This document shows, piece after piece, positions 12,861 through 28,714 of a DNA stretch of 64,000 bases. The stretch is from the NCBI RefSeq assembly GCF_036417845.1, contig NC_089982.1, forward strand, positions 44,789,684-44,853,683, given 5' to 3'. A program made the position numbers and the translations under genes. The notes under the pieces were generated by a model. The model was not told where the DNA came from and made no database searches. It worked only from the letters and a program-made list of their open reading frames with translations. Numbering within the stretch: position 1 is the stretch's first letter; every line of letters begins with the position of its first letter. The stretch comes from Apteryx mantelli. Taxonomy: Eukaryota > Chordata > Aves > Apterygiformes > Apterygidae.

Positions 12861-12894
12861 TTCACTTTTATAAAGACAGACTCCATAGTCTCAC
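12861..12894 (-). pseudogene. Possible AADAT-like exon 13 fragment
   Basis: After a TTCAG acceptor the minus strand reads GAGACT...CTTTATAAAAG...AAG, resembling the AADAT last exon (GAGACTGGCTGACCTTATAA then AAGAAG). It lies 1.3 kb beyond the exon 12 relic; in AADAT the spacing is 1.2 kb. The match is short with gaps. Confidence 0.35.
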
Positions 12895-13339
12895 CTGAAC
12901 AGAGAGAAAGGGAAGAAAGAAAAACCTAACTGGTTAGGACTTTCCCATGGGTTCCACTCCTTGCTCCAAAATCATGTCATGTGCTGTGTGAGCGACCGTA
13001 CTGCCGAAATGCCTGAATTAGCACTGATGGGAGCTACTGTGTCTACACAGCATAGCACTCAGCAGAGCTACTAGCTTAGTCTTCAAAGGTACTGAGCCTT
13101 GCCAGTGTGGTACCACTCTGAGCTAATAAGCCTTGTTTTTCAGTTTATGCTCATCGCCACTCTAATGTAGCTGCACTGCTGCCAGTTTCAAGGCAAACCA
13201 TCTCTGCTAATTTGAGTATATGCTCCATCTCACTGTATCCACCATCTGCTTGGTCAAGGGGCAGGGTTCCTAGCAGGATGCTGCAGATCCCATTGTGCAG
13301 CAATGAGAGACTGCTTCTAGGTGCGAATAAGTATGTTCC

Positions 13340-13450
13340 ACTCTGGATTTTACTCTCTAAGCTCCCAGCTGTAAAATGAAGATCATATCTACATAACAGA
13401 CATGTTGTGAAAATAACTACATTTCATATTATCCAGCATTCAGATACTGT
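13340..13450 (+). mobile_element. MIR-like SINE 3' fragment
   Basis: CTCCCAGCTGTAAAATGAAG...CATATCTACATAACAGACAT then GTTGTGAAAATAAC and CATTCAGATACTGTGG follows the MIR 3' region order. Confidence 0.45.
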
Positions 13451-13703
13451 GGTTAGCTTGAACAAACAGAAGCAATATTTCTTCTGATTTTGTTCAGGAT
13501 GCATCTTCCTAGACCTACAGGATATCTTCAAGTAATTACTGGCATGCAGGATGACAGGATCACATACTAGCTTTACACATTTAAAAGAGTTTTTTTTTTA
13601 TAGCTAGAAATAATCTTCCTGCTACCTAATCTCTCTCCTTCCTCTCTCCTAGAATTACACTGATCCTGTCTCAAAGTAAACAGTGTTGCTTTAATATTGT
13701 AAC

Positions 13704-13738
13704 AATAAATATAAATAAATAAATAAATAAATAAATAT
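13704..13738 (+). repeat. (AAAT)n microsatellite
   Basis: Six to seven uninterrupted TAAA units with a degenerate edge on each side. Confidence 0.9.
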
Positions 13739-14205
13739 ATAAAGTGGTTTTCATGGACCAGGAAGATGGGCCAGGATTGTCAAGCTGGCTAGTCATATAT
13801 CCATTCAACAAGGATTTATTTAAATGAAACCAGCAGTGCCAGAAAACAAAATCTCTTGGACCCTGTGGACAGAAAAGGGGTATTCTTCTGTGGCAAAAAG
13901 GAAGAAAGGATTTCCACTCACCTTTAGCTTTCTATAGTCCTATAGTTGATAACTGAATAGGTATTTTATGTACTCAGAAAGGAGAAAAATTACATATCAA
14001 TTGCATTATTGATCTTAATATGTCTGATAAAAATGTTGGTTTTGAGAATGAAGCTTAATTGAATGTCTGGGCATTAAATGATTGGTGGATGTGCAAGAGA
14101 AAATGCCAAACTTACTCTAGATGTGAAAAACAAATCCCCACAGATAATAATCTGAAGAAGTCATACTTCCCAGTGGTGCCCATCAGTGAGGCTAACACAA
14201 ATCAC

Positions 14206-14301
14206 TTGAACCATCTGGTTGGGAGGAGCTGTAAAGAAGGGAGCACTGATAAGGCCAAGCTGGGAGCTGTCAGTATTGAATCCTCCAGGCATCAAAGACA
14301 C
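14206..14301 (-). pseudogene. AADAT-like pseudogene, exon 12 relic (open)
   Basis: 96 nt (32 codons) against 102, with only in-frame loss. VSLMPGGFNTDSS aligns with [14 protein letters not shown] and the end NQMVQ with AQMDQ. The position of R399 is serine, so substrate-carboxylate binding would be lost. The acceptor CTTAG is kept and the donor is CAA then GTGATT. Confidence 0.82.
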
Positions 14302-26044: not shown

Positions 26045-26080
26045 ACGGTGCCATTTCCTCTTGTTCCCTTCTGGCTCCAA
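26045..26080 (-). pseudogene. Possible AADAT-like exon 3 fragment
   Basis: The minus strand reads close to the AADAT stretch encoding [10 protein letters not shown] (ACAAG-GGAAATG-GCA-C core), in the position expected between the exon 2 and exon 5 relics. The match is about 25 nt and gapped; outside it I cannot align the exon. It could be chance. Confidence 0.3.
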
Positions 26081-26343
26081 AATCTCAGGTGCAGTTTGTG
26101 TTTGCTTCAGTTTCTATAATCCTGGCTATCTACTGTTTCCTATTGAGCAGGGTGGACCCATTATATCTGCATGTTTTGGAAGGATTGTGAACTTTGAAGA
26201 ATAAGGAATATGTGGTAATTTTAAATCCATACAAAATTGCTTGTTTCTCTGAAAACTCCATAGTTTACTGAAGATGTTTGTTTTGTTTTATTATGGAAAT
26301 CTTTTTATAAATTTAACCAGCAAAATAGGAAAAGAATCACTAC

Positions 26344-26362
26344 TTTTTTTTTTTTTTTTTTT
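26344..26362 (+). repeat. Poly-T run
   Basis: Nineteen T. Similar runs are 19859-19875 (17 T) and 30649-30664 (16 A). None is clearly the tail of a recognisable retroelement. Confidence 0.9.
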
Positions 26363-28029
26363 AAGGAACTGAGTTTCATTACTTTACTATGAGCTCAGTT
26401 TTTAGGTTAGGAAGGTACTACCATATTTTTCTGAAAATAATTTGGACACTAGGAACTTGAATGTAAATTTAAGAAATCCAGTTCACAGGTTGCACAATAC
26501 AGACAGTGCATCTGCTCACTTTCAACACTCTGATGAAGCAGACCCTGTACTGCTTCACAAAGTTGCCTATGGCTAACTGATAGTGCTTATAAAGCTTCCT
26601 ATCAGCTGGATGGTTTATGCTGTCAGTATTTAGCTCTTTGTCATAGCTGTTTTTTAAAATCTCTCTTGTTAATATGATGACTCCTTTATTTTCAATAAAT
26701 CCAATACAATGTTCATAAATTGATTGGTGAAAAACTGCATCCATGTTACTGCTGTAGATACACTGCATTGGATGCTAGTATTCTACTCTATGTTTTTGGA
26801 ACCTTTCCCAAGAATCATTTAATTATGTTTTCTCTTTCCCTGATTATCTTCACCCCTATCCTACTCATTTTTTCTGCTGCTTCATCTGTTTATGTAAACT
26901 AGATAACGAAGCAGCATAATCCTTGGGCTGGCAAGAGTGTTACATGTTGTTAAGGGAGCTCTTGTTTTGTAAATGTTGAACCTGGGTCATGAAAAGCGTT
27001 CTAATTAAAAACTGTGCTGTTAGACGTTAACAGTTGAAACTTGCCAGATCTTGGCATCAAAAAGCAGGGAAATAAGGATTAAAAAGGAGCCACCTGCTTG
27101 TAAATTCACCTGAAAAGCACCTGAAAGTAGGTGGTTTCTCAAATAGGAGTGCAGGTAACTTCATCAAGTAACAAAGGCAATTAACTTAAGGTGCTTTTAC
27201 ACATGTGCATTATAACTTGCAGCAATTGACCTATTTTCCTTCTCAAATCAAACCTGGTTTGATACTGTCCTCTGGAAAAATTAAAATCTTACTCTGCAGA
27301 CAGGAATTGGTGGAAAAAATAGGGCCCCATAATGCAGTATGAATATAAACCCCTTCTCATGAACAACATTATCAGATGCATCTGTTCATCCTGGGCTATT
27401 CATATTTAGCAGCACTATGCTCACTTGGTCCATCTGGTCTTGAGATGCCCACTGAAGGAAGAGTATACAGAACAAGTAGGATCTGCACTACCATTAAATG
27501 TGCAACCAGAGAATAGCAGCACTTCAGAATGAAGATACCTTAGCAGTTTTCTTAAACATGTACCTTAATTTGAGATAATTTGCCCCATAAAAATGAGCTA
27601 TAAAAATAACTTATGACCTATAAAGTAACTTAAAAGGAATCAAAATATATTGTTTTCACTTTTCTTTTAAGTTGTTACAGCTTAAATACATAGAATTATT
27701 TTTTCTTAGCTGCTATGCTTTCCAATACCTCTTCAGATCAGAGTTTCAGGTGAGTTTTCCTTTTATACTATGTGGAACCAAACTATGTAAGGACAGAATT
27801 CTGTATCTGTGATTTTGGTGGGATTGGACAGATTCAAGAAAAAGCAAATGTTGAGCCTGTAAATTAAAAACTTGTAAGACAAAAAATAAAATGGTTTCTT
27901 AGAAATAATGTCAAGCAATTTCTGATGTAATTTTAATTTCTTAAAGCACTCCATTGCATCTACATGCTGTGTAAGTTTCCGCTAAGTAATTAGATGGTGT
28001 AAATACCTGGCAATTATCCATAGCATCTC

Positions 28030-28150
28030 TATGTATCCAAGTGCTTTACAAAGGATGGTAGCTATCATTATCCCAATGGGGATAAGGTACAGAGAATGAG
28101 GGAACTTGTCCAAAGTTACTCAGAAAGGAGCAGGAAATTCATGTCATCTG
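28030..28150 (-). mobile_element. MIR-like SINE fragment
   Basis: AAGTGCTTTACAAA, CATTATCCCAATGGGGATAA, GGTACAGAGAATGAGGGAAC, TTGTCCAAAGTTACTCAG is the reverse complement of the MIR 3' half. Confidence 0.6.
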
Positions 28151-28550
28151 AATGCTTTTACAATGGTCTGTCCACTTGGCAACACCATTAAGATTTTTCC
28201 CCTTTTGAACATAACCAACATACTATTCCCATGTAGTTATTCATTCCATTCATATTCAACTGCAGTTATAAAGGGAAAATAAGATATTGCACGTATATTC
28301 TGCATGTCAGTGCACACTTTGGCTTAAGCTGGTTGAACACATGGAAACTAATCTAAGATTGGAAAAAATGGGACCTAAACAAAAGCTTGAATTCAGTCAA
28401 TAGCAACCTGACGCATAGCAGACTCTGGGATCTTTTTACTCCAGTTCACCTTGGTACACATCTAGGGAATTTCAAAACATTTTCTGAATACTGCACTTGG
28501 AAAATAGCCCAAGTCCTAAACTGCCAGGATGCAACTATGCTAATAGTTAC

Positions 28551-28714
28551 CTTTCTGAGACACAGTACTAGAGGATCTCCTCAGCAAATTCTCCCCAGGG
28601 TCAGCATTGGTACAGTCTCTTATAGTCATCCTGGCTGCCTTAAATGAAATGTTTGGCTCAGACTTGCCACCAGCCAAAGAGATTACTGATGGATGGATTT
28701 ATGTATGATGTGGC
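28551..28714 (-). pseudogene. AADAT-like pseudogene, exon 2 relic
   Basis: 164 nt against 169 in AADAT. One frame reads IHPSVISLAGGKSEPNISFK, aligning with [20 protein letters not shown]; the rest of the exon stays open in that frame. The acceptor TTTGTTGCAG and donor AAAG then GTAACT are intact. A 1-nt deletion between the acceptor and the SLAGG motif breaks the frame relative to a phase-1 entry. Confidence 0.85.

What the first reader, a model, noticed from the sequence alone, without database searches (positions are those of the whole stretch)
12861..28714. An ancient tandem AADAT paralogue, now a pseudogene, directly downstream of AADAT
Seven or more exon relics in AADAT order and strand, with introns, next to an intact AADAT. 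Identity is low (about half of residues in the exon 10 relic), so the paralogue is likely much older than the species. In-frame-only changes in the exon 12 relic (a 6-nt loss) and equal length of the exon 10 relic suggest it was under selection as a real enzyme for some time before decay. The lost R399 and N202 equivalents could mean either altered substrate use before death or simple decay.
Basis: partly seen in the sequence, partly recalled or inferred. Interest (0 to 1): 0.75.

Follow-up and report, generated by a model that had tools for sequence, protein, structure and literature searches.

The report
Dead reptile enzyme genes beside AADAT
Next to a working enzyme gene (AADAT) this bird genome keeps the scattered, broken exons of apparently two long-dead sister genes, one of which is still intact in lizards, turtles and a crocodile; it is an old gene loss caught as a fossil, not a new kind of system.

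Summary
The exon relics are real, lie on AADAT's strand and are old. Block Z (exons 5, 6, 7, 10-13; 23242-11437) is best read as the dead orthologue of "AADAT2", a tandem AADAT paralogue found intact in lizards, turtles and Crocodylus porosus. Z falls inside AADAT2 (96/99), beside the crocodile protein (92/74). Simulated decay of this bird's own AADAT never imitated that placement (0 of 28), though AU tests do not exclude bird AADAT (p 0.21, 0.44). Block X (exons 1, 2 and a second exon 12; 30597-27425) is AADAT-type, neither clearly AADAT2 nor a decayed bird AADAT; I found no living match. No intact AADAT2 turned up in this genome. Third-position excess shows a long functional life; changes at invariant codons suggest that Z died about 77-128 million years ago (recalled rates). 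Living AADAT2 keeps N202, K263 and R399 in 17 of 17 rows, so the lost N202 and R399 are best read as decay. Ordinary in kind (an old gene loss), but six literature searches listed no description of AADAT2.

The parts
35640..51044 (-). Intact AADAT: 13 coding exons 51044-50978, 49385-49217, 48183-48051, 47401-47327, 45984-45775, 45281-45216, 43978-43896, 42631-42535, 41685-41624, 39277-39213, 37781-37675, 37019-36918, 35681-35640; 425 aa, no inner stop; GC donor after exon 8
   Evidence: tblastn with human KAT II and joined CDS
30531..30597 (-). Block X: probable exon 1 relic (MNYHQFSSHKTTSGKPYPI), 67 nt as in AADAT, donor GT kept
   Evidence: blastn E 0.013; SW 22 vs null max 19 in 12 shuffles; protein scan near noise; ends
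28551..28714 (-). Block X: exon 2 relic with AADAT-type ISLAGG, two 1-nt deletions, one stop; AG and GT kept at its ends
   Evidence: blastn E 8e-8; 0 null peaks; frame; ends
27425..27522 (-). Block X: second exon 12 relic, 1-nt deletion, acceptor AG lost, donor GT kept
   Evidence: blastn E 6e-5; SW 34 vs null max 27 in 12 shuffles; 0 null peaks; ends
23095..23242 (-). Block Z (AADAT2): recognisable 3' part of the exon 5 relic; loop five residues shorter (PEN.KK.KF) as in Crocodylus AADAT2; donor GT kept
   Evidence: tblastn E 7e-8 with P0176; loop lengths; ends
22661..22724 (-). [not shown]
   Evidence: 85% nt, E 1e-11; 0 null peaks
21796..21879 (-). [not shown]
19945..20009 (-). [not shown]
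   Evidence: blastn alone weak (E 0.11)
16108..16215 (-). [not shown]
   Evidence: blastn E 1e-11
14206..14301 (-). [not shown]
11437..11478 (-). [not shown]
   Evidence: SW 24 vs null max 21 in 12 shuffles; 0, 3 and 0 null peaks with three profiles; ends

Best explanation
The relics are the remains of an old AADAT tandem array. A duplication before lizards split from turtles and archosaurs gave AADAT2, a second PLP-dependent aminotransferase (presumably mitochondrial, acting on kynurenine or 2-aminoadipate) downstream of AADAT in the same direction. It stayed intact in lizards, turtles and at least one crocodile. In the lineage leading to this bird it was freed from selection after the bird-crocodile split and decayed in place by point changes, small indels and loss beyond recognition of several exons (block Z). 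A further AADAT-type copy between AADAT and AADAT2 died too and survives as exons 1, 2 and 12 (block X). Shown: the relics with their order and strand, the AADAT2 clade of intact proteins, the placement preferences. Inferred: date of death, enzyme substrate, that X is one gene and separate from Z.
For: Living AADAT2: 35 of the 215 proteins held are AADAT2-type by best BLAST score, all labelled as squamates other than snakes, turtles or Crocodylus. The Phrynosoma model P0001 runs from AADAT into AADAT2, so they are neighbours there. AADAT2 is one clade (100/100); separate duplications in lepidosaurs, or in turtles plus archosaurs, are rejected (AU 3e-4 and 1e-4). Block Z (196 residues) places beside Crocodylus AADAT2, 97% of placement weight inside AADAT2, lnL 6.4 better than with bird AADAT; 96/99 and 92/74 under a mixture model. 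Simulated neutral decay of this bird's AADAT to the same identity gave -13.9 to -2.8 for that difference; 0 of 28 completed runs reach +6.4. The exon 5 relic shares the shortened loop with the crocodile protein. Block X has 0.9% weight inside AADAT2 (AU 0.03 there, 0.024 with bird AADAT), and its preference for a place outside bird AADAT (2.82) exceeds 26 of 26 simulated decays of bird AADAT. Differences by codon position in Z are 56, 51 and 88 of 196: long purifying selection. 20 of 62 otherwise invariant residues are lost in Z. A whole-genome search with turtle AADAT2 finds no intact second copy (only the best 17 candidates were scored).
Confidence: 0.82

Rival explanations
1. One dead paralogue only: exons 1, 2, 5-7 and 10-13 are one AADAT2 pseudogene, and the exon 12 at 27.5 kb is a stray internal exon duplicate.
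For: Without the second exon 12 the relics are in order. Rejection of X on the AADAT2 stem is weak: AU 0.03 for X together, 0.08 for exon 2 alone, 0.48 for the second exon 12 alone.
Against: The two exon 12 relics resemble AADAT (SW 30 and 41) more than each other (15). Exon 2 keeps S35 and A37 where the AADAT2 consensus and Crocodylus have M and S. X weight in AADAT2 is 0.9%. 26 of 26 simulated decays of turtle AADAT2 place far inside AADAT2, a generous control because turtle AADAT2 needs little decay to reach the target identity. A weak candidate for Z's own exon 2 lies at 24321-24202 (KIPP.VILLSGNLP; 0 null peaks with the AADAT2 profile, but an equally scoring hit at 21646-21552 is out of order).
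Confidence: 0.25
2. [not shown]
For: AU tests do not reject it (0.21 and 0.09; 0.44); exon 11 leans that way.
Against: 0 of 28 simulations reach the observed preference for AADAT2; exon 5 loop shared with Crocodylus AADAT2; a tandem AADAT2 stands beside AADAT in a lizard and AADAT2 exists in turtles and a crocodile.
Confidence: 0.08
3. The relics are chance matches or a processed copy.
For: Exons 1 and 13 alone are near the noise; candidates 5' (32144) and 6' (27871) are noise-like.
Against: 8 relics exceed every null peak with all three profiles; the exons are kilobases apart in most cases and 9 of 12 splice dinucleotides of Z are kept.
Confidence: 0.01

Closest known systems
AADAT2 (annotated as 'kynurenine/alpha-aminoadipate aminotransferase, mitochondrial', mostly with '-like') of lizards, turtles and Crocodylus
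   Same: Next to AADAT (seen in Phrynosoma), tree placement of block Z, shortened exon 5 loop in Crocodylus
   Different: Those proteins are open and keep K263, N202 and R399; the window copy is broken
STK33 unitary pseudogene of neognath birds (PMC4509753, abstract read)
   Same: Old loss in birds with exon remnants, dated there to about 100 million years ago
   Different: STK33 survives in palaeognaths; another gene family
slc26a12, tandem partner of slc26a2 (PMC11145369, abstract read)
   Same: Overlooked old tandem paralogue kept in some vertebrate classes and lost or pseudogenised in others
   Different: slc26a12 is still present in birds, lost only in some lineages; another gene family
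AADAT / KAT II (human, PDB 2qlr)
   Same: Parent family and exon structure of the neighbouring AADAT
   Different: The relics encode no intact enzyme

Membership tests
AADAT (KAT II) family, by descent | Exon-by-exon homology to AADAT on one strand and in order | tested here: met
   exons 3, 4, 8, 9 not found, second exon 12 out of order
AADAT (KAT II) family, as a working enzyme | Open frame with N202, D230, Y233, K263, R399 (roles recalled) | tested here: not met
   Frameshifts and a stop; N202 and R399 lost; D230, Y233, K263 kept
AADAT2 orthologue (block Z) | Falls inside the AADAT2 clade | tested here: met
   96/99 support, 97% placement weight, 0 of 28 simulated decays; but AU does not reject bird AADAT
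AADAT2 orthologue (block Z) | Syntenic with AADAT2 of other reptiles at DNA level | tested here: inconclusive
   Neighbouring order seen only through the fused Phrynosoma protein model; no reptile genomic DNA available
AADAT2 orthologue (block X) | Falls inside the AADAT2 clade | tested here: not met
   0.9% weight, AU 0.03 for X together, but 0.08 and 0.48 for exons 2 and 12' alone
Unitary pseudogene | Intact orthologue in relatives, no intact copy in this genome | tested here: met
Unitary pseudogene | Not transcribed into a product | not testable with these tools
   No expression data

The most novel reading that the evidence does not exclude
Block X is the fossil of a third AADAT paralogue with no living orthologue in the proteins seen, and AADAT2 arose before mammals and reptiles parted, so that mammals, birds and probably snakes each lost a second kynurenine/aminoadipate aminotransferase independently.
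Probability: 0.3. Interest if true: 0.6.

Novelty: new member of a known kind. Interest (0 to 1): 0.42.

Why it matters
It points to an apparently undescribed second AADAT gene kept in lizards, turtles and a crocodile but dead in this bird. KAT II-type enzymes make kynurenic acid and degrade lysine (recalled), so which vertebrates have one or two of them bears on comparing tryptophan and lysine metabolism between reptiles, birds and mammals. The relics make the time and number of losses testable by simple synteny searches.

Tried and rejected

Candidate exon 5' at 32334-32144: seven frame or codon events, nucleotide score within the null, 1 to 6 null peaks as high depending on profile. Candidate exon 6' at 27909-27871: 0, 1 and 0 null peaks as high, E 0.03-0.13, but similar or higher scores elsewhere on both strands. 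Exon 3-like hit at 18020-17952: out of order and across an exon boundary, 11 or more null peaks as high. Exon 2-like hits with the AADAT2 profile only at 24321-24202 and 21646-21552: 0 null peaks each, E 0.02; the first lies where Z's exon 2 should be and reads like Crocodylus, the second is out of order with the same score. None of these is counted as a relic.

No convincing further exon in 10 kb on either side of the window: an exon 1-like hit at 65287 has 1 null peak as high; plus-strand exon 6-like (68687) and exon 12-like (-9481) hits beat the null slightly and are isolated.

Separating columns and private residues are weak evidence. AU tests of Z with bird AADAT are not significant. Timing of the duplication against the mammal split is unresolved (support 74/71; alternative p 0.30).

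Five relic peptide probes (an 8-residue core of each) occur in none of the 215 proteins held.

Rows left out: of 52 reference rows, 45 were used. Placements tried: 87, 35 of those 87.

Papers: six searches (the listings show 15 of 570, 15 of 407, 10 of 26 and 10 of 105 papers) listed nothing on a tandem AADAT paralogue or its loss in birds. Beyond listings I saw the abstracts of PMC4509753 and PMC11145369 and a word search of PMC4290089 (AADAT 0 times in the main text; supplements not available). Most subscription journals are not in the library.

Full report
WHAT IS THERE. The window is a 64 kb piece of a 1.50 Gb assembly (C5:44789684-44853683). Its AADAT lies on the minus strand with 13 exons from 51044 to 35640 and an open frame of 425 codons. 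In trees it falls among bird AADAT proteins (100/100). With 26 other rows (25 labelled as birds, one unlabelled) it branches outside all of them (87/86), which would suit a palaeognath; no row there is labelled as one, so this is a lead only.

RELICS. Downstream on the same strand, relics of exons 2, 5, 6, 7, 10, 11, 12 and a second exon 12 exceed every null peak from 20 stretches of 10 kb of the same chromosome (both strands) with all three profiles used; most also stand out in blastn, exon 10 not (E 0.11). Exon 13 at 11478-11437 has the length of the living exon, an AG before it and TGA at its end, with 0, 3 and 0 null peaks as high under the three profiles. Exon 1 at 30597-30531 is probable only. 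Exons 3, 4, 8 and 9 were not found in the region nor in 10 kb on either side of the window.

TWO COPIES. The second exon 12 (27522-27425) lies between relic exons 2 and 5. Each exon 12 relic resembles living AADAT (SW 30 and 41) more than the other relic (15). I therefore treated exons 1, 2 and the second exon 12 as block X and exons 5-13 as block Z. Putting exons 1 and 2 with X rests on position and residue type and is less sure than Z. A weak candidate for a second exon 2, reading KIPP.VILLSGNLP against KIPSAIMLSGDMP in Crocodylus AADAT2, lies at 24321-24202, where Z's exon 2 should be; a hit of equal score at 21646-21552 is out of order, so I do not count it.

A LIVING RELATIVE. The protein collection holds vertebrates. 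One lizard model, P0001 of Phrynosoma, is an AADAT fused with a second AADAT-like protein. Searching with that second part and with a turtle counterpart (the best 120 of 2265 and of 2218 hits seen) gave a clade, here called AADAT2, in lizards and geckos, turtles and Crocodylus porosus (P0176). Of the 215 proteins held, 35 are AADAT2-type; none carries a bird or snake label. Hits below the first 120 were not seen and labels are those of cluster representatives, so absence in birds and snakes is not proved by this. For this bird, a whole-genome search with turtle AADAT2 matched only this AADAT, two relics (exons 7 and 2) and one weak place on another contig (17 candidates scored).

SHARED LOOP. 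The exon 5 relic aligns without a gap to Crocodylus AADAT2 over a loop five residues shorter than in turtle AADAT2 and bird AADAT (tblastn E 7e-8, against 2.6e-4 or weaker with the turtle and lizard proteins tried). Among the 111 of 215 proteins in which my pattern found the loop, 2 have this length: P0176 and a salamander AADAT; two parrot AADATs are one residue longer. It is supportive, not proof.

LIFE AND DEATH. Relic and AADAT differ at 56, 51 and 88 of 196 codons by position in Z, and at 38, 26 and 48 of 102 in X: much of the divergence built up under purifying selection. At codons invariant in the reference set (at most one exception), 20 of 62 residues are lost in Z and 10 of 23 in X; first and second positions there changed in 18 of 106 and 8 of 39. 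At recalled neutral rates of 1.5-2.5e-9 per site per year this is 77-128 million years for Z and 96-160 for X, with sampling errors of about a quarter and more than a third, and a bias towards young ages because vanished exons are not counted. By the alignment 9 of 12 splice dinucleotides of Z are kept (changed: exon 6 acceptor and donor, exon 7 donor GT to GC).

THE LOST RESIDUES. Living AADAT2 keeps N202, K263, R270 and R399 in 17 of 17 rows. The relic's N202K and R399S are therefore best read as decay. Living AADAT2 does differ from AADAT at positions 19, 40, 142 and 260 near the active site (roles recalled), so another substrate preference is possible but untested.

VERDICT. It is an old gene loss with unusually legible remains, of a kind already known (STK33, PMC4509753; slc26a12, PMC11145369; abstracts read). 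What seems new is AADAT2 itself as an old, widely kept paralogue, and the trace of a third copy; six literature searches listed nothing on either.

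Noticed in passing
window 42533-42534 (minus strand, after exon 8): Living AADAT exon 8 is followed by a GC donor (GCAAGT) instead of GT.
   Followed up: no
window 24202-24321, minus strand: Weak AADAT2-like exon 2 candidate (KIPP.VILLSGNLP) just where block Z's exon 2 should be; if real it would show two exon 2 copies.
   Followed up: partly
P0001 (Phrynosoma), P0016 (Chrysemys): Gene-model fusions in public annotation: AADAT with AADAT2 in P0001; in P0016 AADAT with an unrelated protein that looks transposase-derived by eye.
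   Followed up: no
protein hits labelled as snakes, such as P0026-P0031 and P0035-P0037: Only AADAT, no AADAT2, seen for snakes among the listed hits while many lizards have it: perhaps another independent loss.
   Followed up: partly
P0192 (Trichechus), P0194 (Nycticebus), P0209 (Microcebus): Mammal proteins named AADAT '-like' group inside placental AADAT, so they are not AADAT2.
   Followed up: partly
window 52001-54000: GC-rich stretch (57%) just upstream of AADAT exon 1, presumably its promoter CpG island.
   Followed up: no
living AADAT2 proteins, positions 19, 40, 142, 260: Residues near the active site differ between AADAT2 and AADAT, e.g. Y142 to F in 7 of 17 rows and S260 to T in 9 of 17.
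   Followed up: partly
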